In this document: positions 13,811-52,600 of the stretch, in pieces
Layout of the letters: each line of letters opens with the position of its first letter
Numbering within the stretch: the stretch's first letter is position 1
From: Zanthoxylum bungeanum
Lineage: Eukaryota > Streptophyta > Magnoliopsida > Sapindales > Rutaceae
NCBI GenBank assembly: GCA_019454045.1
Contig: SKCR01038152.1
Span: 186,001-250,000, forward strand
DNA: 64,000 nucleotides
Direction: 5' to 3'
Program-made: the position numbers and the translations under genes
The notes under the pieces: generated by a model
The model's input: the letters and a program-made list of their open reading frames with translations, nothing else
Databases searched by the model: none
What the model was told of the DNA's origin: nothing

Positions 13811-15148
13811 TCAGGCAAAGTACAATTTCAATATGTCAACATTAATCGGCTCGGTGAACTCATTCCCTTCCAAGTCTGACAGTCTCACTGCTTTGTTTCC
13901 CATTACCTTCTACACTATATAAAATCCTTCCCAGTTGGGCCTGAAGTTTCCTCTCGGGTCTGTCATCAATGGCTTCGACTGCTTAAGCACCAAATCACCC
14001 TTTCTGACCTTGGTAGGACACACCTTCTTATTGAACGCTCAAGCTAACCTCTTCTAGTATATCTACATGTGATGCAAGGACTTCATCCTTTTCTCATCCA
14101 TCAACGCTAACTGTTCAAACCGCTGTGAGGCCCATTCTCGTTCAGATAATTCTACTTCTGCTAATACCCGCATGGATCGTATCTCAACTTCCACCGGCAT
14201 TACAGCTTCCATTCCATAGACCAAGGAGTAAGGAGTGGCTCATGTTGCCGTTCTCACCGAAGTTTTGTACCCCCACATGGCATAAGGTAGCTTATCAGCC
14301 CAATCTTTGTAGTTCTCAGTCATCTTGGCTAAAATAGTCTTTATCGCCTTGTTGGGTGCCTCGACTGCCCCATTAGCCTACGGCCTGTAAGGTGAGGACT
14401 TGTGATGGCCTATTCCATACTTCTGTAGCATTGCCTTTGTCTCTCCCTGAAATTGGACTCCGTTTTTCGTGACCATGTGGTGCGGCATACCATACCGAAA
14501 AATGAGATTCCGAGCTATGAATTTCGCCATCTGCTTGGCTGTAACATTACAGAATGACTATACTTCCACCCATTTCGAGAATTAGTCTACTGCCACTACT
14601 ATAAAACGATGCCCATTCGATGCATTTGGTCAAATCTCTCCGATCATATCTATTCCCCATGCTGAGAAAGGCCACGACTCTGACAGCCCATGTAACTCTG
14701 TGTGCGGCAAGTGGTTTAAATTACCGTGTGCTTGAGAATCATGACAGTGCTTTACTAGCTTCGTGCAATCAGCTTCCATAGTCGACCAGTAAAAGCCTTG
14801 TCTCACTATCTTGCGGGACAAATTCAACCCATTCATGTGCGGTCCACATACACCCGCATGTACTTCTTCCATTATCTTTTGAGCCTCTTATTTTCTCAAA
14901 CACTTTAGCTGAATACCATTTTCTTGACTCTTGTAGAGTTCTCCTTTCAAACTTACGTACGGAAAAGCCAACTTCTGAATGGTTTTTCTACCTTTTCTGC
15001 TCGCTTCCTCCGGGAGTTCCCAATGTTCTAAGTATCTCTGAATATCATGGTACCAAGGTTTTCCATCGTTGATCTCTATTTCTAGGACCCTTTCTACCTC
15101 GTAAACAGGTTTACTCGCTGTTGACAACACCAATGGTCTCATTATCAA
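13811..15148 (-). pseudogene. Tat gypsy integrase
   Basis: N-terminal linker and H2C2 zinc region at about 14630-15148 (EEVHAGVCGPHMNG, GFYWSTMEADC). The core around 14340-14480 reads GMPHHMVTKNGVQFQ, YGIGHHKSSPYRP, a stop, then ANGAVEAPNK. The C-terminus KAVRLSDLEGNEFTEPIN ends in a stop at about 13811. Multiple stops and frame changes make it inactive. In the living element it inserts the cDNA into the chromosome. Confidence 0.8.
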
Positions 15149-30723: not shown

Positions 30724-32686
30724 TGTTGGAAATTCTAATCCATGTCCCAAGATCAAAAGAGCAAACAAAACATATAAATGAATGAACAATATTGAAGTAT
30801 GGCGGAATCATACTCACAAAGATCGGAATGCGGATGCGTTGATGAAACAAAAATTTCTCCTTTGTGCAGTGAGGGTTTCGGCCAAACAGAAAAGAAAAGC
30901 TCCAAGCATTTTTGATCCTTCCAAGCTCTAAGATGAGTTTCCCATAACACCTTTGTATGATCCCTTGATGGTGCTAGCCAAATATGTGTATTTTATGTTC
31001 CAAACATGCACAAATTCTTCAAGTTTTTGCAACAAAAACAGAAAAGTGGAGAGCCAAAACTGCAGTGAAGTTTCGGTCATGAGAGGGAGAGGAGAGATCT
31101 GATTTTTTTGTTACAAAAATCAATTTATATTTATGCCATAATATTTATTAATTAATAATAAACTTATGACACAAATCATGCAATGGCTTAGAGTGTCAAA
31201 CACTCAATTTCCATGCAAAACCCTTGAGTGCATTGTACACTATCTCCATGCAATGCATCAACAATTAAATAATGCATATAATGACATGTGTCATGTGGGC
31301 CCCACACGTTTCCAAATGAAAGTGGGCCCACGTGCACTCACGCGTTCGGGTTCGATATTTCCGAAATACCGAACTTACGTCGCGACGTTAATTAAATCGA
31401 ATTTAAATAAATAATTGCGCCTAGCGAAATTATTATTTACGTCGCTAACGAATTAATTCTAAATTAACTCGTTTGCCCAAATTAAAATCTAATTTTAATT
31501 TCGCGTCGAAATCGAATTTCGATTATTATATCGAATATAATAATTTTACGATTAATTCCAAATTAATCGTTCTCTCTCTTTATATAGTACTTTATCCAAG
31601 ATAAAGTCTCTCCGTAATTAATCCAAGATTAATCGAGTTTGAATCATACGTCATTGGTGAATCTTCGGGAAGCGACCCAAGAGATCTCTAGATATGTTGG
31701 CAGTAAATCCGGTTGTCGAACTATCCGAACACGTACGTACCAAGTACTACGTTTTTACCGATTTACAAGACAAGGTTAGCCTCTAGCAAAACGCCATGTC
31801 TACCCATTCTCTAGAAATATTCTTATTGAAATATAAGATCTATAACAGGCGTAGTATTACCGTAGTATAGTGTATTCTGATCCAGTATCGGATGATCACA
31901 TGTAAGGCCTGGGGCTGGAGATGTGTCTGCCCCGTACGATACATATATCGGACATCAAGCAACTAGTCTCTTTGAATCGGATAATCCTGACCTTGTCATA
32001 TTATCCCGATGGTTGCAACCATTATAGAGTACTAGTTCTGTATCCTGCGCGATCATCATCTCCATATGTCTGAAGTGATACTTCCGTCTTGACATCACAC
32101 CCAATACACTACGATTCCCAATAAACCTAGAAGAGGTGTACACAGAACCTGTTAAAGCCCTGGACGACCAAAACTAAAGTCTACCGATTGTCGCAAGTAC
32201 TAGCGATGCAAGTCTCAGGTTAAGACCATATGCACCTACCCTGAAGCGGACTCCCATAGACACGCAGACATACTACCAATGGGATTCCGCTGGGGTCTAT
32301 CTAGAGCGAAGCTGTTTTCCGTACCATTGGTAAAACACAACTCCTACCGCACTTGCATAAGTATCCAATACTCAAATATATGAGAACTATGCTGTTGTGC
32401 CCTCACAACACGCACAAGTGCAGTAGTACTAGTCTATTCCGCATTATCGATGTCCAATCTCGATAATACTACGACTAGGGATATTTAATGATAAAACCTT
32501 TATGGATTGATACTGTCTCATATCATCTCAATCCGGAATTAATCATAGGGACTTTTACCATTTATATATCAAAGTAAATAAATTACAAAACGGTAAAAGG
32601 CAATTTCATTACTACATAGTTAATTTTGTACAATAATACAATATCATTTACAAAATAGTGACGCTATGGGTCATTACTGTCTAACA
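30724..32686 (-). repeat. 5' LTR of C3
   Basis: 1963 bp, TGTTGGAAATTC...CTAACA; differs from 22587-24539 mainly by scattered single-base changes and indels. Palindrome run at about 31370-31640. Confidence 0.93.
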
Positions 32687-34893: not shown

Positions 34894-36693
34894 TGACCGG
34901 CGTAATCACAAGCATATAACGCAAGCGCACATATCGTTCAAGTAGTATAAAAATTCGATCCCACAGGGACTTAATTCCTACTATTGTTATTAATTATTGA
35001 ATCTATTTATTTACATGTATCTAATTATAGGGAAGGGAATTGATTGCTTTTGGTTGGTTGAATGTGGATTTTCTAATTAAAATAAATAAAATAAACAAAA
35101 GACTCAAAAGAAAATACCAAGGAAAATAAAGAAAAGACTCAAAGATCTAGGGTCGTGACTCCACACAATATTGTTAAAAAGATGAATTGATTCCATTACT
35201 TATGTGTAATAATTCAGTTTACTAACCTGGAACACGATGATATGCAAAAGCCTCTTCCGATGGTCAGACGCAAATACCCAGTATAACCAAATTGAACCAT
35301 ATTCCTATGTCAACCACATTACCTGGATTCATTAAGATCAAGTTCCAATTATGGCTACCCATGCCCGACAGGTATATTCCTATCCTGTAAAGAAATCTAT
35401 TAAAGGGTTATCTATTCTCAAGGAAGATCATGAGCTATTAAGTCTAGGGCTGAAACCTAAAATCCCTATGTCTAGTTCATTTTAAGTTTACCAAATCAAT
35501 CTTATTAATGGCCAATTAACAAGAAGCATTAAGCTTAAGACTCAATAAACAAACTAAAGAATTACCAATAAAAAGAAAATCAATTATTAAGTGTGGATAT
35601 TGTGTTTCATCACTTCCATAGAATAAAAATAAAATGCTGGAGGTTGTGGGATCCACCTTTACTATTCCTAATTTAGAAATCTCTCTTACTATAATATAGA
35701 ATTTATCAATGATATTACCAACCAGCCATATAGGCATTATCCTCATTAAGTCAGATTTTAATTAAGTCCAACCGGACATAGAGGCGGGTTATTATTAGTC
35801 CATAAACTAGCCATATAGGTGGTAATTATCTGTCACCTAAAGACCATCCATATAGGCGGTGTTACTTTATGTCAAATAAATAAAACCAACCATTAAGACA
35901 ATAATTCTTTTAATTTGAATTATACTTTCTATATTATAATTAAGGGAGATTAATCTTAACTAAAATAATAAAAGCTTCACCCTTCCCCCAGCGGAAATCT
36001 AACTACTAAACATAAAAGAAAAGAGAAGAAGAAGAACTACTACTATTACTGAAAATAAAATTGCATAAATTAAACACACAAGATGCAATCCTTAAATTCC
36101 TTACAAAAACCTAAGGAAAGCATGAGAATTACAAATGAAATTGCTTGGTATTTATAGGAAAATCTAAAGGCCTCCACCAATTTCTCCACCAATTACTCCA
36201 CCAAACATGGCACCAAACATGCAAACATGTTTGGTGGAAGTTTGACAATTTTTAATTTTTAATTTTATTTTATATTTTGAAAATGACTATAGTAATTATA
36301 CAAAAATATTGGATTTCATCAATTTCGGTCATGGAAACTTAGAATTCGAAATTATTTTGACTTTCAAAGTTGTAGATCTTCAAGTCTTCTTTAATTTGGA
36401 ACTTGAATCAGCTCAATCGGATATCGGATGAAAATGTTATGGCCAAAATACGAAACTTGCGCAAAACTAGAATTTAGGACTGCACTTCGTGACGTGTACA
36501 ATAAATTTTAAGTTTTGACATTTTTTTTCCTCCGAATTTATTGTTTTAGCCCCGAATTGATTCCATTAAGTCCCAATATTATTTTTATCTGCAAAATAAA
36601 CAAAAATACATCAAAACGTTCATAAAACTCGAGAAACTATACAAAATAGTAGGTAAAATGAGTGGGAAATAGTGATATAAATACCACTCATCA
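34894..36693 (-). repeat. 3' LTR of gypsy-type element
   Basis: TGACCGGCG...CTCATCA, 1800 bp. Within it, 35720-35900 has spaced copies of a GCCATATAGGCGGT-type repeat, and 36170-36236 has 12-bp CCACCAA-type repeats ending in a foldback, upstream of the TATA box in the element's sense. Confidence 0.85.
36149..36156 (-). promoter_or_regulatory. TATA box in gypsy-type LTR
   Basis: Minus-strand TATAAATA in CCTATAAATACCAAGC. The same context recurs at about 44730 and 59212 in the other two LTR copies. Confidence 0.6.
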
Positions 36694-37907
36694 CACCCCC
36701 AAACCTAACATTTTGCTAGTCCTCGACCAAAACACAAAATAAAATAACATGAAATTAAAATTAAACTAAGCCACTTTCGTAGGGATCACGGTTGCATTTA
36801 GCGTATGCAACAAGCCTTTAAACCCCTAGGTGTCCCTACTGGACAAGTTGTAGTCTCGTGAGGGTTTACAATAACGATACCCACAAACATTTTACAAAAG
36901 TAAAAAGGTAGTGAAACCAATGCACACAAAAACAAAAAGACAAGAGAAAAGAGAATAAAGAAGCTTGTGATTAATCAAGTGAAACTTCTACTCCAAGTTA
37001 GTAGTTGTTTTCTTTCTTTTTAAACTACCGAATAAGTAAATTCTCCGATTATATTTACCATTCTCCATATACATAGCCAACAAAATATTAATCAACTCAT
37101 TTTTGCCCACAACAATCACAAGTGTAATTGATAAGAGAGTAATATTTTTGTCTTAAAATTCTATCAGATTTCACACCTTTTTGTATCAATGGACTAATTT
37201 TTTGGATTTTTCTGATTTTTTTCTTTCTTTTTCTCTATTATATTTTTTATTTTTATACAATATCTTCCGTCTATGTAACGAGCTTTGGGTCGGTGGCTCC
37301 CAAACCAGTTAGCTTTAGGGCACCAAGTGTTAAGACACCCATACGGACTTAATTACTCAAACTTCAAATATAAATATATTTTGCAACATCTTCTATCCAT
37401 GTAACGACCTTTGGGCCAGTGACTTCCAAACCATTCGGCTTTAGGGCACTAGGTGTTAAGACACCCTTACAGACTTAATAACTCGGATCTCGGATGTTTT
37501 TTTTTTCATTTTTTTTTTCTCCATTGCCATTTATAGATATTTCCTCCAATTAAACTAGAGCACTGAATATTACAAACTTTTCAATTACGACTCATGTCCG
37601 TATATTACTATGCATATTGATAATACTTGCCAACTGAGCATATGAAGATCCATTTTAGTCAGTTTTATGGAGAATTTACAAATTAAAATATTTAAAAGGA
37701 AATAAACAAAAATTAACTTGCTTCGAAAATGGGTTGAAATACGTATCAGGAGTGGGAACTCCTTACACAGCTATCTCTCACCAATTTCACCTTTTTAATA
37801 AAAATAAAAACACAAAAACGCAAAATATTTTGTAATTTTTGAAAATTTTCAATTTTTTTTTTTGTATTTTTTGAAAAATTTTAGACTAAAAATAACACAT
37901 AAGAACT
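36694..37907 (-). other. Polypurine tract and 3' untranslated region of outer copy
   Basis: 36694-36708 is a polypurine tract on the minus strand (AGGTTTGGGGGTG) adjoining the LTR. The rest is AT-rich, with two copies of a TGTAACGACCTTTGGG-type segment (about 37275-37340 and 37395-37470, roughly 125 bp apart). No gene seen. Confidence 0.6.
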
Positions 37908-38565
37908 TGACCGCGTAAACACACAGTATAACGCAAGCGTACGTATCGTTCAAGTAATATAAAAATATCGATCCCACGATGACTTAATTCCTACTATTGT
38001 TATTAATTATTGAATCTATTTATTTACGAATATCTAATCAGAGGGAGAAGATAATGATTGTTTGATTGGTTGGTTGAATGTGATTTTCCTTAATTAAAAT
38101 AAATAAAATAAACAAAAGAAAATACTAAGGAAAATAAAAAAAGCCTCAAAGATCTAGGGTTGTGACTTCACACAATATTATTAAAAATATGAATTGATTC
38201 TCTTATATATGTGTAATAAATTAGTTTGCTAACATGGAACACGAAAATATGCAAAAGCCTCTGTCGATGGTCAGACGCAAATACCCAGTATAACGCAATT
38301 GAACCATATTCCTATGTCAACCACATTACCTGGATTCATTAAGATCAAGTTCCAATTATGGATACCCATGCCTGACAGGTATATTCCTATCCTGTAAGGA
38401 AATCTATTAAAGGGTTATCTATCCTCAAGGAAGATCGTGAGTTATTAAGTCTTGGGATGAAACCTAAAATCCCTATGTCTAGTTCATTTTAAGTTTACCA
38501 AATCAATCTTATTAATGGCCAATTAACAAGAAGCATTAAGCTTAAGACTCAATAAATAAACTAAA
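37908..38565 (-). repeat. Partial internal LTR of gypsy type
   Basis: Matches the first about 660 bp (plus strand) of the full LTRs, from TGACCGCG to AATAAACTAAA, and then stops. The U3 part, about 1.1 kb, is missing, so it has neither TATA box nor U3 end. Confidence 0.82.
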
Positions 38566-38600
38566 AATAACATATAAAAATAAGATACTATTAACTAATC

Positions 38601-38640
38601 CCCACCCCCAAACCTAAATGAGACATTGTCCCCAATGCCT
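38601..38640 (-). other. Second polypurine tract, just after LOG
   Basis: Minus strand GGGGACAATG, then AGGTTTGGGGGTGGGG, the typical gypsy pre-3'-LTR sequence. It lies about 60 bp after the LOG stop codon, placing LOG in the interval between gag-like frame and polypurine tract. Confidence 0.7.
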
Positions 38641-38697
38641 TAAAAAGTAGAAGATGAGTTTAGAAGGTAGTACCTAATTAGCTGAAATGTAGAAAAA

Positions 38698-39351
38698 TTA
38701 CCGATTAAGATCTATGTCCAATTTACGCTTCTTTCCACGATCGCTATCTGACCAGTTCAACTTAGAAAGAATGAGGTCGATTTTTGGTTCAAAGGCTAAG
38801 ATTTGGTTAATCAATTCTTCGGCCTTTGTAGCAGTCAGGAAAATATCTTGAACAGATTTTGTGATGAACTCATGTCTTTTGGCTTCCGCAAGAAATAAAA
38901 ACAGAAAATTGAATAAATGTTCAATGTTAAGTAACCCAATGGGCTTCCGATGAATGTTTAAGTGTGCCCATGATGCTACGGTGAACATTTCTTCAAATGT
39001 TCCAAGCCCTCGTGGTAACGTAATCAACGCATCTGCAGTATTGATCATTTCATGGATTTCTTCAGACATACCTGATACAATGCGTTCATTTCCATTTGTT
39101 GGTCCAATTAATTGTTCGTCCGCCAAAGGTTTTGGAATGATTCCCAAAACATGACCGCCACCTTCCTGAACGGCTTTTGAAATGCTTCTCATCATTCCAA
39201 GATTGCCACCACCATATACTAGGTGCATATTTCGTTCTGCTATGACTCTCCCCAATTCCTTTGCAGCCTCAATGAATTCTGGTTTATTGCCAGTGTTGGA
39301 TCCACAGAAAACACAAATTCGCTTGAATCGCTGCTGTGAAGTTGCTTCCAT
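38698..39351 (-). CDS. LOG: LOG-family phosphoribohydrolase-like protein, intronless
   Basis: 217 residues, the usual LOG length, with no stop or frameshift. LOG enzymes are cytosolic and release active cytokinin base from its riboside monophosphate. Rossmann-like fold: KRICVFCGSNTGNK (9-23), VYGGGNLGMM (45-54), IIPKPL (71-76), LPRGLGTFEEMF (112-123), NIHRKPIGLLN (132-142). The family motif PGGxGTxxE reads PRGLGTFEE: the second residue is Arg, the Glu is kept. The Arg usual in the MHxRKxxM segment is Glu98 (MSEEIHEM), so activity is doubtful. The C-terminus has a basic KKRK and an LDIDLN tail. Plant LOG genes normally have several introns, so a processed copy is likely. The Met matches the family start. 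It lies between a gag-like pseudogene and a polypurine tract, in the element's orientation. Confidence 0.93.
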   Translation of the reverse strand: MEATSQQRFKRICVFCGSNTGNKPEFIEAAKELGRVIAERNMHLVYGGGNLGMMRSISKAVQEGGGHVLGIIPKPLADEQLIGPTNGNERIVSGMSEEIHEMINTADALITLPRGLGTFEEMFTVASWAHLNIHRKPIGLLNIEHLFNFLFLFLAEAKRHEFITKSVQDIFLTATKAEELINQILAFEPKIDLILSKLNWSDSDRGKKRKLDIDLNR

Positions 39352-39410
39352 TTTCTCTCTCTTATTTGAATGTATATCAGGATGTGTTGAAGAGAGAAAT
39401 GTTGAGCTGA

Positions 39411-39417
39411 ATTTATA
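39411..39417 (-). promoter_or_regulatory. TATA box of LOG-like gene
   Basis: Minus-strand TATAAAT in GGATCTATAAATTCAGC, about 60 bp before the ATG. A CT-rich stretch (TTTCTCTCTTC) follows where transcription should start, leaving a leader of roughly 30-40 nt ending AGAGAGAGAAA-ATG. Confidence 0.55.
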
Positions 39418-39886
39418 GATCCTGAAAATGGGTGAGTAATAATTGCACTAGTATCTACCAAATGACAATTATTAGATGAACGTTAAAATAAATCGTGAAA
39501 AGTCAAAAAGTTTAGATCTTGTCGACGAAAATAAAAGAAAATAACAAAAGAAAAGCAAATCAAAGCAATTATTAATACAACGGAATTTTGTACGTAATAC
39601 GCCACTCGGTTAGTATAAATTCATCAGGATGCATCTCAGGAATTCATTCCTTACTCAGCCATCACTCATGAATTAGCTATCATATTTATGATTGCCAAAC
39701 ACCATTCCTTTTGTCTTAAAATGCTCCATTTGTGCTTTTCCCTACAAAAATAACACACAAAATTAAAAATTTCTACAACAAGTGTACACAAATTATAAAA
39801 ATAGAAATTACAACAAATTGCATAGGTTGCCTCACTACTAGCGCTAAATTTATCGTCTTCAGCCAGACGTGACTGAAATCTTTATG
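39418..39886. other. Spacer between gag-like frame and LOG
   Basis: No gene seen. At about 39824-39836 the minus strand reads TGAGGCAACC, in the context seen shortly after the last frame of many plant gypsy elements. Confidence 0.5.
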
Positions 39887-41128
39887 TCAAGGAGGTTTTA
39901 GCGTCGTCGTGGATGTCCGATTAAAGACAATCCCATAAGCATTGCTTTTGAAGGGTCTCTTCCAACTGTTAAGTGGCAAAAAATTTTTCGTCTTATTCAA
40001 TACTCGTGCCACCTTTTTGATCTTTGTCGCTCCAGTGGTTCCTGAAAAGAAAGAAATAAAATCAGGAGGTCTCGTATGGTGCTTGACTTTGAATGGAAGT
40101 TCCATTTTGTCAAGCTTTTAGGCGATATCTTTGATTTGTACTCCCCAAAACAGTGATGTTTCGCCTAAATGCTCTGGATCTTTAATAGGGTCAGACATTT
40201 GCTCCTCTATTTGCTCTGCTTCTTGCTCCAGCTTTTCTTCACAGATGTATTTTAGGATTTTTGTATTTAGTTCTTCATCTGTCATCTGTGAAATGCATGC
40301 TCCATAAGTGTCAACTTGAGGATGTAAAAATGTTTATGACATTAGGACTTCATCCTCTGATACGGCTGGAATGGAGGGTTCATGTGGATCTTCTTCAAAC
40401 ATTTGTGCAATGCAATCTCCAAGATCTTCAGCCAGAGGATGTAAAGTTGTGTCTGTCTGTAAGCTTTTATCCTCTGTGGTTGGTAGTTCTTCTTCAAACA
40501 TCACTGCAATGTATGCTCCAAGATCTTCATTTTGAGGATACAGAATTCCATCCTCAATTTTCGGTGCAGTTGGTACAAAATGCTCAGCTTCTTCGTCAGA
40601 GTCAGAATCTGAATAATAAAAATCAAATCAAGACTTTGATGGTTTGGGCTCTTGAACTGATACCTCTGGTTCCTGAAGCTGCTCAACTTCCTCTTCATAT
40701 ATAGTGTCATCGTGATAAGCTTGGTACTCGAAGGCTTCATCAGTATCATCTGAAAATGGTCGTTGAGGTATGTAGCTCTGGTTTTCTGTTAATTTTCTGA
40801 TCTGCTCAGTCATTCTCTGAATGGATTCTGCTTGACTCTGAATTTGTGCATCAATTTGAGCTTTTCCTTCTTCGAACCAATCTTTGAGCATGTGCAGTAT
40901 CTGATCTTCCTCGGATGGTTCTGGTTCTTGATCAAAGGTGGATGGTGGATAAGATGGAAAATGTGATGGTTCTTTGTACCTTGAATGATTCCAATAATTC
41001 TGCCACTCTGAAAGGTATATACATTGAGCGCTCGGGTGGTTACCATCACATATGACCATATCCCCATTTCGTTCCGATGAGAAAATGTAGTATTGCTTGG
41101 TTTTGGCATCCAGTGATAATTGTTGGGC
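39887..41128 (-). pseudogene. gag-like protein of gypsy-type element, C-terminal part
   Basis: Several frames: 40810-41109, 40628-41059 and 39887-40105. Visible features are CDGNHPSAQC (a short zinc-knuckle-like motif similar to CxGxHxxxxC in Athila-type gag), a coiled-coil-like QIQSQAESIQRMTEQIRKL stretch, and a long acidic, Pro/Glu-rich tail ending in a basic segment (NRTSTTTLKPP). Frame changes make it a pseudogene. A solo copia LTR splits it at 41129. Confidence 0.6.
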
Positions 41129-41133
41129 TGGAT

Positions 41134-43237
41134 TGTTGGATAATATGACCTATAGCGTCACTATTTGTACAGATCACGGTGTTGTTGTACAAATTAACTA
41201 TGTGACAAGGAAATTGCACTCTCATCATTTATGATTAGATCACCATAGATATATAAGTGAAGAGAGGTCTCTATGATTAGTTCCTGGGTTGAGAATGATA
41301 TGAGACAGTATCAGTCCCCGAAGGATTAATCATTAAATATCCCTAGCCGGAGTATTATCGAGACTGGACATCGATAATGCGGAATATGCTAGTATTGCAC
41401 TTGTGTGCGTTGTGAGAGCACAACGGCATAGTTCTCATATATATAAGTATTGGATACTTATGCAAGTGCGATAGGAGGTCGTGTTTCACCGATGGTACGA
41501 GAAACAGCTTCGCACTGGATAGACCCCTCGGAATCCCATTGGTATTATGACTATGTGTCTATGGGAGGCCGAAATCAAGGTAGGTGTGTATGGTCTTAAC
41601 CTGAGACTTGCACCGCTAATACTTACGATAATCGGTAGACTTTGGTCTTGGTGGTACATGGCTTTAACCGGTTCTGCGTACACCACTTCTGGGTTTATCA
41701 GAGAGTCGTAGTGTATTGGGTGTGATGTCAAGACGGAAGTATCACTTCAGTCATAGTGGAGATGATGTCACGCAGGATACGGTACTAGTGCTCTTAAGTG
41801 TTGCGCAACCATCGGGATATTATGACTAGGTCATGCATATCCGATTATAGAGACTAGTTACCAGACATCCGATATGTGCTTCGGACGGGGTAGACACTTA
41901 TCCAGCCCCAGCCCTAGCACGTGACTATCCGATACTGGGCCGATATACATAATACTACGGTATACTACGCTTGATATAGATCTATATATTCCTGTAAGAA
42001 TATTTCTGGAGAATTGGGTAGGCATGGCGCTTTGGTAGAAGCCAACCTTGTCTTGTAAATCGGTATAAACGTAGTACGAGGTGCTTACGTGTTTGGATAA
42101 TCCGACGACCGTATTTACTGCCAACATCTCCGGAGATCTCATGGGTCGCTTCCTGAAGATTCACCGATGATGTATAACTCGCACTTTAATTAATCTAGGA
42201 TTAATTAAAAGAGAGAGAAAAATAATCTGGGATTAATTGCGGAGATATTTTATCTGGGATAAAATATTAATAAAAGAGAGAGAACGATTAATTTGGAATT
42301 AATCGATAAAATAATATATTCGATATATTATAAGAAATTGGATTTCGACGCGGAATTAAAATTAGATTTTAATTCGGGCGAACGAATTAATTTAGAATTA
42401 ATTCGTTAGCGACGTGAATAGTGATTTCGCTAGGCGTAATCATTTAATTATGACGCAACGGAAAATTCGTTAATTTCGAATTAACGAACCCGAACCCGGG
42501 ATTATTTGCAAGCGCATTCGCATTTCGAATTCGAGTGCGGCACGCAAGTCAAATCGTGCGTCATATCGCTAGTCGCATCAATCGTCAAATACTTGTCATT
42601 TTGAGTGATGTGACATGACATGTTGTCACTTTATTAAAGTGACTTGATGTGAATAGTAAATGGTTGTTGGAAAAGCATTAATAGGCTTTTTGCTTTTTGA
42701 CTTTTGTACTTGGTAAATGTAAATGCTTTTTGTATTTGATTTTATTTTTGGAAAATAAAATAAATATATAAGTAAAAACCATTTACCTTCTCTCTCTCTC
42801 CATTCACGTTTTTCCTCTCTTTTCTTCTCCCTCTCATTCACGGCTTAGAGCCATTTCATCTTCTTCTCCATTTTGGTCACTGCCGAATTGAAATAGAAGC
42901 AAGTGAGAGTGTTTTGTTGCAAAACAAGAGTGCTAGCACACACATGGGTTATATTATGGTGATAGGGAAACGAATTTGTGAGCTTGGAAAGCTTGAAGCT
43001 TGGAGCTTCAATGGAGGTCATCAATGGCCGAACATGGAGGAGACCACCACCACCAAAACCGAGCACTCCACAGCAAGGAGAAGCCTTGGGCGAGCTTATG
43101 GAGGGAGCTTGAAGGCTTGTATTCTTCATTTCATCAAAACCCATCAATGTGAGTATGAATTCCGCACCTCATTTGATGTGTATTCAACTCATTTTTATGC
43201 ATGATTTATGATCTTGGGACTTGATTGAAACTCAACA
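41134..43237 (+). mobile_element. Solo copia LTR
   Basis: TGTTGGATAATATGACC...CTCAACA, 2104 bp, flanked by the 5-bp duplication TGGAT (41129-41133 and 43238-43242). It is a complete LTR of the C5/C6 subfamily in the opposite orientation, with no internal region: the product of recombination between the two LTRs of one insertion. Palindrome run at about 42185-42500. Confidence 0.93.
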
Positions 43238-43242
43238 TGGAT

Positions 43243-43400
43243 AACATGCCTCAGAAAATCGGACTGTTGCTCCCAGATTTGGGGTGTATCTTCTTATAAG
43301 GCTCGTAATCTTTCAATCTCCCAGTAGTGTTCCATTGTTCAACCACCTGAAAATAAATGAAAGAAACAATATTACAGATAAAATTAAAGAAAATTAGATA
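43243..43400 (-). pseudogene. gag-like protein, N-terminal part
   Basis: Beyond the solo LTR, the minus strand reads QVVEQWNTTGRLKDYEPYKK and then a stop. It is preceded by TTTATTTTCAG, which looks like a splice acceptor. Function beyond belonging to the gag-like frame is unknown. Confidence 0.4.
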
Positions 43401-43446
43401 CAAGTAAATTAGATAGCTTTAAAATTAATAACTCAAGAAATATAAG

Positions 43447-43464
43447 TCCCCGGAAACGGTGCCA
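43447..43464 (-). other. Primer-binding site of gypsy-type element
   Basis: Minus-strand TGGCACCGTTTCCGGGGA, close to the TGGCGCCGTTGCCGGGGA site (tRNA-Asp) of Athila-like plant gypsy elements. Six bases lie between it and the LTR. Confidence 0.75.
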
Positions 43465-43470
43465 AAAACT

Positions 43471-45174
43471 TGACCGGCGTAATCACATGCGTATAACACA
43501 AGCGCACGTATCGTTCAAGTAGTATAAAAATATTGATCCCACCAGGACTTAATTCCTACTATTGTTATTAATTATTGAATCTATTTATTTACAGGTATCT
43601 AATTATAGGGAGAAGGGAATTGATTACTTTTGGTTGGTTGAATGTGGATTTGCTTAATTAAAATAAATAAAATAAACAAAAGACTCAAAAGAAAATACTA
43701 AGGAAAATAAAAGAAAAGACTCAAAGATCTAGGGTCTTGACTCCACACAATATTGTTAAAAAGATGAATTGATTCCCTTACTTATGTGTAATAATTCAGT
43801 TTACTAACCTGGAACACGATGATATGCAAAAGCCTATTCCGATGGTCAGATGAAAATACCCAGTATAACCCAATTGAACCATATTCCTATGTTAACCACA
43901 TTACCTGGATTCATTAAGATCAAGTTCCAATTATGGCTACCCATGTCTGACAGGTATATTCCTATCCTGTAAGGAAATCTATTAAAGGGTTATCTATCCT
44001 CAAGGAAGATCGTGAGCTATTAAGTCTAGGGCTGAAACCTAAAATCCTTATGTCTAGTTCATTTTAAGTTTACCAAATCAATCTTATTAATGGCCAATTA
44101 ACAGAAGCATTAAGCTTAAGACTCAATAAACAAACTAAAGAATTCCCCATAAAAAGAAAATCAATTATTAAGTGTGGATATTATGTTTCATCATTTCCCT
44201 AGAATAAAAATAAAATGCTGGAGGTTGGGGGATCCACCTTTACTATTCCTAATTTAGAAATCTCTCTTACTATAATATAGAATTTATCAATGATATTACC
44301 AACCAGTCATATAGGCGGTATCCTCATATTGTCAGATTTTAATTAAGTACAACCGGCCATAAAGGCGGTGTTATTATTTGTCCATAAACCAACCATATTG
44401 GCGGTAATTATCTATCACCTCAAGACCAGCCATAGAGGCGGTGTTACTTTATGTCAAATAAATAAAACCAGCCATTAAGGCGGTAATTCTTTTAATTTGA
44501 ATTATAATTTGTATATTATAATTAAGGGAGATTAATCTTAACTAAAATAATAAAAGCTTCACCCTTCCCCCAGCGAAAATCTAATTACTAAACATAAAAG
44601 AAAAAAGAAGAAGAAGAATTACTACTATTACTGAAAATAAAAAGGCATAAATTAAACACACAAGATGCAATCCTTAAATTCCTTTCAAAAACCTAAGGAA
44701 AGCATGAAAATTACAAATGAAATTTCTTGGTATTTATAGGAAAATCTAAAGGCTTCCACCAATTTCTCCACCGATTACTCTACCGATTGCTCCACCAAAC
44801 ATGTCACCAAACATGGCACCAAACATGCAAGCATGTTTGGTGGAAGTTTGACAATTTTTATTTTTTATTTTATTTTATATTTTGAAAATGACTATAGTAA
44901 TTATACAAAATATACTGGATTGTTCATCAAAACGAAACTTGCGCAAAACTGGAATTTAGGACTGCACTTCGTGACGCGTACAATAAATTTTCGTTTTTGA
45001 CATTTCTTTCCTCCGGATTTCATCGTTTTAGCCCCGGATTGATTCCATTAACTCCAAACATTATTTTTATCTACAAAATAAACAAAAAATATCAAAACGT
45101 TTATAAAACTCGAGAAACTATACAAAGTAGTAGGTAAAATTAATGAAAAACAGTGATATAAATACCATTCATCA
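43471..45174 (-). repeat. 5' LTR of gypsy-type element
   Basis: TGACCGGCG...TTCATCA, 1704 bp. Five spaced copies of an ACCRGCCATANAGGCGGT-like repeat at about 44303-44490. TATA context at about 44730 with CCACCAA-type repeats and a foldback at 44755-44842. Confidence 0.87.
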
Positions 45175-46338: not shown

Positions 46339-47566
46339 TGTTGGGTTTTCTAGGTCAAACCAAGATCTAATTAAACATATAAACGTGTGAATACATCAAA
46401 GTAAAGTTGCGGAAATACTCACTTTGATCAGCTTTTGGATACGACGAACACAAAACTTTTCCTCCTTGTGTGATTCGGCCAAGCTCCTCCATGGATGATC
46501 TTCAAGCTCCAAGCTTTGTTGATGGATTCCATGCTCATGAATGAGTTTCCCTATCACCTTTGTTAGACTCCTTGAATGTTGTTGCATCAATAGAAAAATT
46601 GCCACAATTTTCTTCCTTTTTCTTTTGCCACATTCGGCCAAGCCCAATGGGTGAGAAAAATGAGAGGGCCATTCGGCTAAGGAGAGGAATGAGAGAGAGA
46701 GAGAGAGTTATGTTTGGTTTCTAAAACCTAATACAAAAAATCCATCACACTTTTTGGTATTAACTTTTTCCAAAAAGCAAAAAAAAAAAAAAAAAGGGAG
46801 GGAAAATGGCATTCAATGCCTTCAACAACCACCATCAAACACATCCTGGGCACGGGTTCGTTAATTCTGAATTAACGAATTTTCCGTTGCGACGTAATTA
46901 AATCAAATTTAATTAAATAATTATGCCTAGCAAAATTACTATTCATGTCGCTAGCGAATTAATTCTAAATTGATTCGTTCCCCCGAATTAAAATCTAATT
47001 TTAATTCCGCGTCAAAATCTAATTTCGTTTAATATATCGAATATATTATTTTATCGATTAATTCCAAATTAATCGTTCTCTCTCTTTAAATAGTATTTTA
47101 TCCCAGATAAAATATCTGTGTAATTAATCCTAGATTAATTTTCTCTCACTTCTAATTAATCCCAGATTAATAATGTGCGAGTCATACGTCATCGGTGAAT
47201 CTTGGGGAAGCGACCCATGAGATCCTTGGATATGTTGGCTGTAAATTCGATCGTCGGACTATCCGATCACGTACGTACCTAATACTACATTTTTACCAAT
47301 TTACGAGACATGGTTGGCTTCTAGCAAAGCACCGTGACTACCCAATTCTCTAGAAATATTATTAAAGGAATATGTTATCTTCGTCCGACGTAGTATACGT
47401 AGTATTGTGTATTACGATCCAGTATCATATGTCACATGCTAGGCCTGGGGCTGGAATTGTGTCTGCCCCGTAAGAAGCACATTTCAGATCTCTTGTAACT
47501 AGTCTCTATAATCGAATAACTATGACCTTGTCATATTATCCCGATAGCTGCAGCATAAAAGAGTAC
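46339..47566 (-). repeat. 5' LTR of C4, part 1
   Basis: TGTTGGGTTTTC...AGTAC. Contains a GA microsatellite (about 46690-46708), a poly-A run (about 46780-46796) and the palindrome run (about 46860-47175). Interrupted at 47567 by C5; the rest is at 57763-58393. Confidence 0.85.
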
Positions 47567-49683
47567 TGTTGAGTTTCAATCAAGTCCCAAGATCATAAAT
47601 CATGCATAAAAACGAGTGAATACATGTCAAAGGAGGTGCGGAATAAACTCACATTGATCGGTTGGATGCAACGAAGATGGACCAAATTCGCACTTCATGT
47701 TTCTGCCTCCATCAAGCTCGGTTTTGGGCCTTCTTGAACTGCAGTGGACTGCCGGTGGGGGCTGTTTTGATGCTCCAAAATCGGCCATGCAAGACTCCAT
47801 TGAAGCTCCAAGCTTCAAGCTTTCCAAGCTCACAAATTCGTTTCCCTATCACCATAATATACCCAAGTGTGCTAGCACTTCTTCATCTTCCTTGCTTCTC
47901 CATTTGCTCTCAAACCAGAGGAAAATAGATGAAGAATCGGTCTTATGAGACCGTGAGAGAGAGATAAGGTTTTGGCTCCAAAAGCCTAAAACCGTATATG
48001 TTTCAAGAGAGAGAGAAAAGCTTTTCATTTTTGTTTTATATATTTACCAAGTAAATAATAATCAACATATATTACTTTTAATAAAAAGTCAAAAAGCAAG
48101 AAATAAATAATGTTATATTTCATTTCAAGCTTTTAAAAGCTTTTCACCAACTCAAATCAACTATTCACATCAAATCCATCTACTTTAATAAAGTGACAAC
48201 ATGTCATGTCCATCACTCAAAGTGACAAGTGATTGACGATTGATGCGACTAGCGATTTGACGCTTGATGTGACTTGCGTGCCGCACTCGAATTCGAAATG
48301 CGAATGCGCTCGCAATCACTTTCGGGCTCGGGTTCGTAATTCCAAATTAACGAATTTTCCGTTGCGTCGTAATTAAATGATTACGCCTAGCGAAATCACT
48401 ATTCACGTCGCTAACGAATTAATTCTAAATTAATTCGTTCGCCCGAATTAAAATCTAATTTTAATTCCGCGTCGAAATCCAATTTCTAATAATATATCAA
48501 ATATATTATTTTATCGATTAATTCCAAATTAATCGTTCTCTCTCTTTAATTAATATTTTATCCCAGATAAAATATCTCCGCAATTAATCCCAGATTAATT
48601 TTCTTCTCTCTTCTAATTAATCCCAGATTAATTAAAGTGCGAGTCATACATCATCGGTGAATCTTCAGGAAGCGACCATGAGATCTCCGGATATGTTGGC
48701 AGTAAATACGGTCGTCGGACTATCCGAACACGTAAGTACCTCGTACTACGTTTATACCGATTTACAAGACAAGGTTGGCTTCTAGCAAAGCGCCATGCCT
48801 ACCCAATTCTCCAGAAATATTCTTACAGGAATATATAGATCTGTATCAAGCGTAGTATACCGTAGTATTGTGTATATCGGCCAGTATCGGATAGTCACGT
48901 GCTAGGCCTGGGGCTGGATTTGTGTCTGCCCCGTACGAAGCACATGTCGGATGTCTGGTAACTAGTCTCTATAATCGGATATACATGACCTTGTCATAAT
49001 ATCCCGATGGCCGCGCAGCACTTAAGAGCACTAATACCGTATCCTGCGTGACATCATCTCCAATATGACTGAAGTGATACTTCCGTCTTGACATCACACC
49101 CAATACACTACGACTCTCTGATAAACCCAGAAGTGGTGTACGCAGAACCGGTTAAAGCCCTGTACCACCAAGACCAAAGTCTATCGATTATCGTAAGTAT
49201 TAGCGATTAAGTCTCAGGTTAAGACCATACACACCTACCCTGATTTCGGCCTCCCATAGACACATAGTCATAATACCAATGGGATTCCGAGGGGTCTATC
49301 CAGAGCGAAGCTGTTTCCCGTACCATCGGTGAAACACGACCTCCTATCGCACTTGCATAAGTATCCAATACTTAAATATATGAGAACTATGCGTTGTGCC
49401 CTCACAACGCGCACAAGTGCAATACTAGCCTATTCCGCATTATCGATGTCCTGTCTCGATAATACTCCGGCTAGGGATATTTAATGATTAATCCTTCGTG
49501 GACTGATACTGTCTCATATCATTCTCAATCCAGGAACTAATCATATGGACCTCTCTTCATTTATATATTTATGGTGATTTAATCACAAATGATGAGAGTG
49601 CAATTTCCTTGTCACATAGTTAATTTGTACAACAACACCGTGATCTGTACAAATAGTGACGCTATGGGTCATATTATCCAACA
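47567..49683 (-). repeat. 3' LTR of C5
   Basis: TGTTGAGTTTC...TATCCAACA. Palindrome run at about 48350-48625. The short plus-strand frames at 47662-47948 recur in the other LTR and are not genes. Confidence 0.92.
48034..48042 (-). promoter_or_regulatory. TATA box in C5 LTR
   Basis: Minus-strand TATATAAAA, followed in the element's sense by a CT-rich stretch. Repeated at 56107-56115 in the other LTR. It places the palindrome run roughly 0.3-0.6 kb upstream, in U3. Confidence 0.55.
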
Positions 49684-52600
49684 ATCTCCCACTTGGCACA
49701 TAGCCAGTCACTCGAGTGTCCCACACCCGAACTATGTACGGTTCGCTCAAATTGCTGAGAAGAGATTTTCGTCAGCGGATTTGCGTAATTATCTTCTGAC
49801 GTGATTTATACGATCATCACATCGCCACGATGTATGATCCGAACGAATCAGATGAATATAGAAGTATATATCTGGATCGTCGATGAGACCTTTAATTCCT
49901 TTAGCCTGTGCTGACGCCTAGCTCAGCTGCTAAAAGAACTATATCTAATCTAATTAGATTTATTTTCGATCCAAATGGCTTCTATTGCTGCCTCAGCTGC
50001 AGCAATAATCCGCATTTGTTGTTTATTCGGCAACAGTTATCTTGCTCGGAATATTTCCAGCTTACTGTCCCAGTGTTCAAACTTTATAGTACCGTATTAT
50101 TTACCGGTTTGGAAACTTGCAGCAGTGATCCCAGTCACTTCAAGTTCTCCATCTCCATAGTTTAAGACAACATCTTTAGTTCTCTCAGATACTAACAGAT
50201 GTTCTAATCTTCAATCCAGTGACTATCACTTGGATTGACCCGATTGTGACTCCATATGCTCAAAGCGTATGAGACACCAATACAAGTACATTTTAAATGT
50301 ACAATTTCCAGAGAGTGTTAACAACTCCAAATCTATCCTGTAGATCTTTATTCCTTGAATAAAGGTTGTTACTCCCCAGAATTCTACGGAGAATTTCTTA
50401 TGAAAGCCAAGCTTTCACCGATTGCTTTATGGGAATTTCATTGTCAGTGCCCTCTCCCACTAACCTCCTTATATACACAAGAATTATTTCGTTTTGAGTC
50501 AAATCATAAACCATTATGATTATTTCAAAACGTCAGTTCCAAGAACCTTATGCTTGCTTCAATCCAAACATGGATCGAATAACCCGCAAACCTTGTTTGT
50601 CGGTTATATAAAATCGTCAGGATGTTGTAAGCATCCTCCAAAAGGTTTCTTTTCAGGAAAGCGATTTTGATCTGCAACTGACACATTTCATAAATGAAAT
50701 ATGCAGTTATCAACAAGCATCTTCAAAATGGATTTACCATGGCAACAGGTAAAAGGTTGAACCGTTATTAACACAATGTTGATAACGATACCTTTCCTTC
50801 AAAAGCCCAGCTTTGTACGTTGGTATGTTGCCTTCCATGTATGTCTTCCTTGAAGACGTTTAATGTACCAATAGGCACAATGCCTTGTGGTACAACAACT
50901 AGTATCCAAAATAGTTGTTATACATGGAATCCATTTCGGATTCATGGCACTTTGCCATAATAGGGAGTCGATACCTTGTATCACTTCCTCAAAACGTAGT
51001 CGGTGGATACCTTCATAAGATTGACATCTTTATGAGGTTAGATCAGAAACCCATACCCTAGGTTGTTTTCTGACTCTATCCGATCTACGAGTGTCTTGTG
51101 TATTTGAAGATTAATGGTATAGATTCATCATAGATGAACTATTTGTGTTCCATTAAGGACTTCGTGCCTTGAACAGTATTACTCCGATTTTCATCGAGTA
51201 TCACTATCCTCCCACTGACCACTGCATATCGGTATTCCTCTCAGGAAAACCGCATGGTGAGCAACAATCACATTGTTCTCATGTGAGATTTATAAGTACT
51301 ATACTTATGGTTTCCCTTAGGATAACCTATATTGGCACTTATCCAATTTGGGTCCTTAGTTTGGTATCATCCAAACGTTATGCCTGGCATACCCAAATTG
51401 TCAGAAATGAGAAACTCGTTTCTTTCCCGTTCATATCTATATGTAATCTGTCAAACAGATTATTATGGAACCTTATTCTAAATAAGTTATTGCACTGTTA
51501 AAACTTATCCGTTGAAGGAAATGGTAGCTCAGAGCGACTCATGATTAGCCTTATCATGTCTAACATGATTCGGTTAATCCGTTCGGACACACCGTCATTT
51601 GACGTGTTCCGAGAGGAGTCCTCATTTGAAAGAATACTATACTCTTTCAAGTATATAAGAAACTTATTGCTTAAGTATTTTCCATTACGGTCTTACCGTG
51701 ACGGTATAATACTATAGCCGATCTGTTTGTCTATTTCGTGTCGAAACTCTAAAAGTTTCTGATTTGTGTTCTTCAAAGAAACACATAACCATAACGTGAT
51801 GCCACATCCGTTAAGGTCACGAAATATTCATGTTCACATCTAGCCTAGCTAGATATGGGCCCACTAACTTCACCATGAATAGGGCTAACAGATCGGTGGC
51901 ACTTACACTATTACCAAGTAAACAGTGTTTTAGGTACTTTACCTAATAAACTAGATTCGCAGACCTTATTTGAATAGTCAAATCAGTCCTAGTACCCACT
52001 CTTCAAAAGTGTGGATATACGAGTCTATTAAATTGTGTCCTAGACAACAATGCCACAAATAAGTCTCTATTGATCAAATCAATTTGAGCTATTTATTTGT
52101 CATTTTATATGTTTGAGATTTTATTTATATTCAAAATATAAATTCTGTTATTTACATCTAATGTATTTATCTCAGTATCATCTTTATATAATAAAACACT
52201 TAGTGTTCTATAATATAAAGGTTTTATCCGCAACGGATTAAACACTGATATAGAGATATGTCTCTAGTCAAACTAGTTACATTATAACAGTCCCTAATTT
52301 AAGTATATACCCAAAGGGTAGTTCCTAAACTTAGGTATCTACGGTCGAAACAGCGACTTTCGTCCCGTTTCCGATTCGCAGAGAATCTCGGCTTGAAGTC
52401 AGTATCCGCTCATAGCGGATTCTGAACATCAATACATATATTTTATGTACCACACTAAGTATTTAAAATCCAATTTCAATACTAGTAGTAACATAACTTT
52501 GACAAATATTTTTAAAGTTAGAGCCTCGCCCTTTCTTTAATTCCTTCGTGTCTTCCATATCCAAATGGTAGTCACTATGGGATATGTCAATTATCCTTTC

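What the first reader, a model, noticed from the sequence alone, without database searches (positions are those of the whole stretch)
34894..45174. An intact, intronless LOG-family gene inside a retroelement that has no pol
Seen: between the primer-binding site and polypurine tract of a gypsy-type element there is no RT, RNase H or integrase. Instead there is a broken gag-like frame and, about 60 bp before a polypurine tract, an unbroken 217-residue LOG-like frame in the element's own orientation. Known: plant LOG genes normally have several introns, and non-autonomous LTR elements can capture host transcripts. Inference: a processed LOG copy was carried off by this element. The gag-like frame around it is decayed while LOG is open, hinting at recent capture or selection. 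A cytokinin-pathway gene as retroelement cargo would be unusual.
Basis: partly seen in the sequence, partly recalled or inferred. Interest (0 to 1): 0.88.

Follow-up and report, generated by a model that had tools for sequence, protein, structure and literature searches.

The report
Retroelement carrying a remodelled LOG gene
A plant jumping element carries an intact, intronless relative of a hormone-activating gene (LOG); it is an old, high-copy gene of the element itself, with a changed active site and a new tail, rather than a recently captured working hormone gene.

Summary
Confirmed: window 34894-45174 holds a pol-less Ty3/gypsy-type element on the minus strand with an open, intronless 217-aa LOG frame (38698-39351). 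Corrected: the LTR piece just past the first polypurine tract is an extra fragment, absent from 36 of 37 other LOG loci checked; the terminal PPT and 3' LTR lie 1.9 kb further on. The capture is not recent. LOG is high-copy in this 3.96-Gb genome (1,031 exact hits to one LOG 30-mer). In fuller relatives it stands behind RT-RNaseH-integrase and a second accessory frame resembling carlavirus nucleic-acid-binding proteins (NABP): 20 of 20 fetched NABP loci have a LOG match downstream, about half of them damaged. Relatives from Citrus, Populus, Reevesia, Xanthoceras, Paulownia and Orobanche form one clade (100/99) apart from three other plant LOGs. On that tree the proposed cytokinin-precursor pocket changed once; catalytic residues were lost in at least two sublineages; a disordered basic tail, often with an EAR-like LxLxL, was gained. 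Private changes are near neutral, shared ones constrained: selection acts on the element. LOG in Citrus and Populus LTR elements is in print; the NABP-LOG pair, pocket loss and tail were not found in the papers searched. Function is inferred.

The parts
43471..45174 (-). 5' LTR (1704 bp, TGATGA...CGGTCA)
43447..43464 (-). Primer-binding site TGGCACCGTTTCCGGGGA; tRNA-Asp-like as in Athila elements (that assignment is recalled)
41134..43237 (.). Nested solo LTR of another family, TSD TGGAT; not part of the element proper; related stretches within 46910-49686 and 31404-32526
40628..41059 (-). Gag-like remnant (143-aa frame); a stretch at 40754-41044 is weakly similar to the gag-NC region of L039
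38698..39351 (-). LOG-like frame, 217 aa, open; PRGLGTFEE at the catalytic loop, E at the catalytic-Arg position, tail KKRKLDIDLNR
38600..38615 (-). Internal polypurine tract AGGTTTGGGGGTGGGG, about 85 nt past the LOG stop; a similar tract stands there in the 11 other copies printed
37908..38565 (-). Extra fragment of the 3' part of the LTR (90% to both LTRs), absent from 36 of 37 other LOG loci
36694..36708 (-). Terminal polypurine tract TTAGGTTTGGGGGTG abutting the 3' LTR
34894..36693 (-). 3' LTR (about 1800 bp)

Best explanation
Shown: the window copy is a non-autonomous, internally deleted member of a high-copy Ty3/gypsy lineage (Athila-like by integrase and PBS; that name rests on recall) whose fuller members in the same genome read RT-RNaseH-integrase, NABP, LOG. 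LOG copies across eudicots form one clade, and changes passed on between copies are constrained. Inferred: one old capture; LOG is a gene of the element, kept by selection on copies that transpose. Inferred: the protein no longer makes cytokinin in most of the lineage. It keeps the LOG fold, lost residues proposed to hold the adenine and prenyl groups (one change on the tree), and gained a flexible basic tail, often ending in an EAR-like LxLxL. The most likely function is a nuclear protein that binds a nucleotide-like ligand or partner and recruits a TOPLESS-type corepressor, acting with the carlavirus-like NABP (a likely silencing suppressor or nucleic-acid binder) to make host cells permissive for the element. 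The window copy is probably a decaying passenger that moved with proteins supplied by others.
For: High copy: 150 scored of 68,300 candidates; 1,031 exact hits to a LOG 30-mer, 0 for the reversed pattern. Order: 20 of 20 fetched NABP loci (of 150 scored) have a LOG match downstream; RVT_1, RNaseH, H2C2 and rve upstream of NABP-LOG on contig C21301 (L068 + L050). NABP of L050 over Pfam cut-offs: PF05515 29.6 against 23, PF01623 28.2 against 20.9. NABP-type and LOG sequence also in single gene models of Citrus (P0070, P0087) and Orobanche gracilis (P0135). One clade 100/99 with pocket, catalytic and tail columns removed; pocket state and K100 change once each. H97/K100/E125/W129 all kept in 10 of 192 lineage rows against 34 of 35 others. 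Tail: 84 of 162 full tails have basic residues plus LxLxL; of 35 others 1 has LxLxL and 0 the basic motif; tail pLDDT mostly under 50, core blocks 85-98. Selection: clade A against B dN/dS 0.18 at dS 1.32; shared codon changes 11 N:25 S, private 80 N:37 S, Fisher p 8e-5, private close to the neutral 2.48. NABP against L092 dN/dS 0.23.
Against: The window's own tail is LDIDLNR, not strict LxLxL; 38 of 162 tails have the Orobanche form without LxLxL, and LxLxL changes seven times on the tree. 103 of 192 rows still have R, GG and E together, so some may be active enzymes. Of the 20 LOG matches behind NABP only 10 are a single near-full-length match, the rest split or truncated. Only 4 of 38 LOG-selected loci have NABP within 1.5 kb; L092 has NABP without LOG nearby. 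The 30 copies behind the selection test were picked by similarity. Only three other plant LOGs were in the tree, and one of them (Dioscorea P0049) itself reads PRG and has K at E122. No RT tree was built. Nuclear entry and TOPLESS binding are untested; no transcript data.
Confidence: 0.6

Rival explanations
1. One reading: a recent capture of a processed, working LOG transcript by this non-autonomous element, supplying active cytokinin-making enzyme.
For: Intronless open frame in element sense in a pol-less element; many copies with the same flanks.
Against: Deep clade across eudicots; LOG also behind pol in fuller elements; the four pocket residues are not all kept in 182 of 192 rows nor in the window copy.
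Confidence: 0.05
2. The element LOG is still an enzyme, with a shifted substrate: a phosphoribohydrolase for another nucleotide that alters nucleotide pools or a signal in favour of the element.
For: 103 of 192 rows keep the catalytic Arg and Glu and the glycines; the fold is intact, TM 0.94 to 2a33 by target length.
Against: Catalytic Glu replaced by Ala in 48 rows (Citrus P0029 and P0211 among them) and catalytic Arg by Gln in 20 rows (window clade among them), while LOG frames of clade A stay constrained.
Confidence: 0.25
3. LOG and NABP have no function for the element; open frames merely reflect youth and hitch-hiking.
For: Private changes are near neutral; deleted families still amplify; many LOG copies carry stops (46 of 150).
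Against: dN/dS 0.18 at dS 1.32 between clades; shared changes differ from neutral, p 5e-7; the C-terminal pattern persists in Citrus rows at 45-47% identity to P0013.
Confidence: 0.08

Closest known systems
LTR retrotransposons with a YgdH/LOG domain in Citrus sinensis, C. clementina and (with a looser filter) Populus trichocarpa (PMC9289625, section 12 and passages read; it cites Steinbauerova et al. 2011, not held)
   Same: LOG-type extra frame in plant LTR elements; Citrus and Populus proteins fall in the clade found here
   Different: The parts read report no second viral-type frame, pocket loss, tail or copy-level selection; other host species; non-autonomous amplified family
Plant LOG enzymes (AtLOG3 At2g37210, AtLOG8 At5g11950)
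   Same: Fold, and 42-44% identity in the structural alignment
   Different: Pocket residues H97, K100, E125 changed in most rows; catalytic residues lost in some sublineages; added basic/EAR-like tail; uninterrupted element gene
Carlavirus and allexivirus cysteine-rich/nucleic-acid-binding proteins (PMC12172455, passages read)
   Same: Basic stretch followed by a Cys-rich finger; Pfam cut-offs passed by several copies
   Different: 182 aa, encoded in a retroelement behind integrase; function untested; the likeness may be short-motif convergence
Athila extra 3' frames (PMC6317226 and PMC11728184, passages read)
   Same: Frames downstream of integrase
   Different: Domains differ (Athila ORF-1, transposase-like, transmembrane)

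Membership tests
Athila-like Ty3/gypsy lineage | RT-RNaseH-integrase order with Ty3-type domains in fuller copies | tested here: met
   L068 and L050: RVT_1, RT_RNaseH, H2C2, rve
Athila-like Ty3/gypsy lineage | Placement in the Athila branch of an RT/INT tree | not tested
   No reference tree built; the name rests on recalled motif and PBS resemblance
Non-autonomous LTR element (window copy) | LTRs, PBS and PPT present, pol absent | tested here: met
   RT tested at DNA level only
Non-autonomous LTR element (window copy) | Dispersed copies with the same LOG-flank structure | tested here: met
   36 of 37 other LOG loci share the 3' flank join; 1,031 pattern hits
Active LOG phosphoribohydrolase | LOG fold and family match | tested here: met
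   NCBI equivalog NF058542 not reached (93.9 against 300 bits)
Active LOG phosphoribohydrolase | PGGxGTxxE plus catalytic Arg (R99/E122 of CgLOG, PMC4979012) | tested here: not met
   Window: PRGLGTFEE and E in place of R; lineage: 103 of 192 rows keep R, GG and E
Active LOG phosphoribohydrolase | Adenine/prenyl pocket H97, K100, E125, W129 | tested here: not met
   Window SITW; 10 of 192 rows intact
Viral NABP/CRP-like protein | Pfam PF05515/PF01623 over gathering score | tested here: met
   L050: 29.6/23 and 28.2/20.9; L005 and P0135 pass both; L008 passes PF05515 only; P0070 is under the PF01623 cut-off
Viral NABP/CRP-like protein | Silencing suppression | not testable with these tools
   Needs an assay
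EAR-motif repressor | LxLxL or DLNxxP motif | tested here: inconclusive
   85 of 162 full tails have LxLxL; the window copy (LDIDL) does not; DLNxxP not counted
EAR-motif repressor | TOPLESS binding and nuclear repression | not testable with these tools
   Needs an assay

The most novel reading that the evidence does not exclude
An ancient eudicot retrotransposon lineage carries a two-gene host-manipulation module: a carlavirus-like silencing suppressor and a LOG enzyme turned, in ordered steps (basic tail, EAR motif, loss of the cytokinin pocket, loss of catalysis), into a nuclear corepressor-recruiting protein, maintained by selection at the level of the element.
Probability: 0.3. Interest if true: 0.88.

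Novelty: new variant of a known kind. Interest (0 to 1): 0.7.

Why it matters
What extra frames of plant LTR elements do is an open question; many lack recognisable domains (PMC11728184, passages). Here an extra frame has a well-studied enzyme fold with known catalytic and proposed pocket residues, an ordered series of losses and gains, a second virus-like neighbour, and a copy-level signature of selection. That makes the question testable with standard enzyme, localisation and corepressor-binding assays. It also warns that many LOG-like gene models in public plant genomes (clusters of up to 328 members in the listings) may be element genes and should not be counted as a cytokinin gene family without checking their flanks.

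Tried and rejected
Rejected: recent capture; LOG-PPT-LTR junction as a mobilisation signature (it is an LTR fragment absent from the other copies checked); the 41-43 kb stretch as element body (nested solo LTR). Led nowhere: NABP structure (pLDDT 54, not used); IMG/VR scans (LOG: 23 loci at 24-47% identity; NABP: none); PDB search with NABP (one hit, E 0.48). One GTDB contig (L092, plant sequence in a bacterial MAG) gave integrase-NABP without LOG. A first scan for polypurine tracts used a wrong pattern and was redone; there the strict tract was found 40-140 nt past LOG in only 6 of 38 loci, since the others end in GA instead of GT, and a tract 1.1-1.4 kb past LOG in 28 of 38. Never answered, so not done: host LOG exons in this genome, an unbiased sample of copies, a DNA search with the LOG-LTR junction.
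Full report
What is there. The window comes from an unnamed assembly of 3.96 Gb, evidently a plant. On the minus strand, 45174 to 34894, lies an LTR element: 5' LTR 43471-45174, PBS 43447-43464, a gag-like remnant, a LOG-like frame 38698-39351, an internal polypurine tract 38600-38615, a terminal PPT 36694-36708 and the 3' LTR 34894-36693. The LTRs differ by K2P 0.062 over 1672 sites; at a recalled plant rate of about 1.3e-8 per site per year that is roughly 2.4 million years. Two stretches are foreign to the basic plan: 41134-43237, a solo LTR of another family with TSD TGGAT, and 37908-38565, a second piece of the element's own LTR, 90% to both LTRs. In 36 of 37 other LOG loci the two sides of that piece lie together within about 30 nt; the 37th, L038, matches only in LOG; some of the 37 are near-duplicates.

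No pol. Integrase, NABP, gag-core and protease queries find nothing in the element; one gag-NC query matches 41044-40754 at E 1e-4. The RT-RNaseH region of a fuller relative shares no DNA match with the element; the only match of that 9-kb stretch is to the nested solo LTR. A protein-level RT search of the element was not run.

Copy number and context. A PF03641 search of the genome had 47,331 first-look candidates and the 150 scored are all over 126 bits. The window LOG as query gave 68,300 candidates; of the 150 scored, the window copy included, 104 have no internal stop and 46 have one or more, by my count of the listing. A 30-base LOG pattern has 1,031 exact matches (484 + 547) and the reversed control none. 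With AtLOG3 as query, 150 of 57,849 candidates were scored, all single matches over nearly the whole query at 49-52% identity, 5 of them with a stop, so intron-bearing host LOGs could not be seen among them; a short exon query did not complete.

Fuller relatives. L039 has LTR, gag (PF03732, 80 bits), a protease-like frame (PF13650 at 17.2 bits, under its cut-off of 24.3) and LOG. L004, L005, L006 and L008 have, between an integrase C-terminal stretch and LOG, an NABP match (broken in L004). Of the frames scanned, L005 passes PF05515 and PF01623, L008 passes PF05515 only, L050 passes both. With the L005 frame as query, 150 of 47,162 candidates were scored; the 20 loci fetched all have a LOG match downstream on the same strand, starting roughly 230-260 nt past the usual NABP stop. 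Ten of these LOG matches are single and near full length; ten are split or truncated. I printed the frames of 4 of the 20: three (L050, L057, L061) have integrase sequence directly upstream, split by a stop in L057; one (L054) has a protease-to-integrase-C-terminus deletion. On contig C21301, RVT_1 and RNaseH (L068), then H2C2, rve, NABP and LOG (L050) follow one another; sequence further upstream shows no gag frame I could name, and the LOG there has a stop within its first 25 codons. Against an obligatory pair: only 4 of 38 loci chosen by LOG similarity have NABP within 1.5 kb upstream, because the most similar copies belong to deleted families; and L092, plant sequence in a bacterial MAG, has integrase and NABP but no LOG in the 983 nt that follow.

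Elsewhere. LOG relatives were listed from Citrus, Orobanche, Xanthoceras, Populus, Paulownia, Reevesia and many unnamed contigs, some clusters holding 79 to 328 sequences (the best 120 of each search are shown). NABP relatives were listed from Xanthoceras, Populus, Acer, Orobanche, Rhamnella and others. NABP-type and LOG sequence are merged in one gene model in Citrus (P0070, whose PF01623 score of 20.5 is just under the cut-off, and P0087) and Orobanche gracilis (P0135). P0197 (LOG) and P0240 (NABP) are both listed with a JGI contig of 4,511 bases, which suggests one contig but was not checked. For these plants I saw proteins only, not flanks.

One lineage. In a tree of 50 rows with the pocket, catalytic and tail columns removed, the 42 lineage rows form one side of a branch at 100/99 against 3 other plant LOGs and 5 bacterial ones (a first tree with all columns, agrees at SH-aLRT 99). 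One of the three, Dioscorea P0049, itself reads PRG and has K at the catalytic Glu. The deepest rows (Xanthoceras P0207 and P0123, and P0158) keep the pocket, and two of the three have a basic tail without LxLxL; the next row (P0205) keeps the pocket and has the tail with LxLxL; the other 38 have changed the pocket. Pocket state and K100 each need one change, LxLxL seven changes within the lineage. Whether the deepest rows lie in elements is unknown.

Active site. PMC4979012 (section 6 and passages read) names R99 and E122 of CgLOG as the proposed catalytic residues, reports that alanine substitutions of AMP-binding and catalytic residues nearly abolish activity (S19A excepted), and proposes M96, H97, K100, E125 and W129 for the prenyl group. 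In 227 rows, 192 of the lineage and 35 others (33 from the listings, 2 Arabidopsis), H97/K100/E125/W129 are all present in 10 of 192 against 34 of 35. R99 is R in 163 and Q in 20; E122 is E in 137 and A in 48; R, GG and E together remain in 103. The window copy has E for R99, PRG for PGG, and pocket SITW. Rows are related and not independent; loss of catalytic residues in two sublineages was read from the rows, not counted on the tree.

Tail. Of 162 rows with a full tail, 85 have LxLxL in the last 16 residues, 145 a K/R-rich triplet and 84 basic residues plus LxLxL; 38 have the Orobanche form ending FLSL or similar; of the 35 others 1 has LxLxL and 0 the basic motif. AlphaFold of the window protein (without its first Met) has mean pLDDT 86.7, with 203-207 and 209-216 under 50, so the tail is predicted disordered; the core matches 2a33 at TM 0.94 by target length. 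LxLxL as an EAR motif follows the abstracts of PMC6283911 and PMC9956375 (search listing only). The window tail, LDIDLNR, is not a strict match.

Selection. Between the two LOG clades of this genome (30 and 6 distinct copies) mean dN is 0.238 and dS 1.32, ratio 0.18. Within clade A, codons private to one copy are 80 N:37 S plus 5 stops, near the neutral ratio 2.48 (p 0.48); codons shared by at least 4 of 30 copies are 11 N:25 S (p 5e-7 against neutral; Fisher p 8e-5 between the classes); codons in 2 or 3 copies were not counted. Copies thus seem to decay freely after insertion while changes passed on by transposition are filtered. The copies were chosen by similarity, which lowers N and should affect both classes; an unbiased sample is wanted. 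L004, L039, L041 and L043 were left out before these counts, and identical sequences (L005/L006) were counted once. NABP against L092: dN/dS 0.23 at dS 0.92; integrase was saturated. The DNA downstream of LOG is 86-88% like the window in 7 of 8 clade-B loci (75% in L001), while the blocks holding LOG are 72-79%; this suggests exchange of segments between families. The abstract of PMC2410132 speaks of recombination among distantly related Athila elements (search listing only).

How it most likely works. Shown: an element-borne, old, constrained LOG with an altered pocket and a new tail, next to a virus-like NABP in fuller elements. Inferred: loss of cytokinin activation; nuclear entry by the basic tail; corepressor recruitment by LxLxL; cooperation with NABP, whose viral namesakes carry an NLS and zinc finger and act as silencing suppressors (PMC12172455, passages read). 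Catalytic residues lost in two sublineages, with the frame constrained in clade A, argue that catalysis is not the selected property there; 103 of 192 rows with catalytic residues keep an enzymatic rival open.

Known and new. LOG (YgdH) in Citrus and, with a looser filter, Populus LTR elements is in print (PMC9289625, section 12 and passages read), citing Steinbauerova et al. 2011, which is not held; I recall its abstract mentioning two Athila-like elements similar to LOGL4. In the open-access library I found no report of the NABP-LOG pair, the pocket loss or the tail (searches; passages in PMC6317226, PMC7264820, PMC11593424, PMC11728184). Subscription papers and supplements were not searched, so this is a limited statement. 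I rate it a new variant of a known kind.

Noticed in passing
window 13814-15058 (-): A diverged Ty3-type integrase stretch (28% to the L050 integrase, E 2.5e-53), from another element
   Followed up: no
window 31404-32526, 41134-43237, 46910-49686: Several stretches of one foreign LTR family in both orientations, roughly 70-99% alike by block; one is a solo LTR with TSD TGGAT nested in the LOG element
   Followed up: partly
L041: Two LOG units in tandem joined through a truncated LTR, as from unequal recombination or template switching
   Followed up: partly
L002-L008 against window 36600-37900: Segment downstream of LOG is much more alike between LOG clades A and B than LOG itself (7 of 8 clade-B loci), suggesting segment exchange between element families
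   Followed up: partly
L092: Plant-type retroelement contig (integrase and NABP) filed in a Candidatus Nomurabacteria MAG: probably contamination
   Followed up: partly
P0128, P0137 (Orobanche), P0029 (Citrus), P0052: Protein clusters of 79-328 members, some annotated as LOG enzymes or hypothetical proteins; possibly element genes inflating LOG family counts
   Followed up: no
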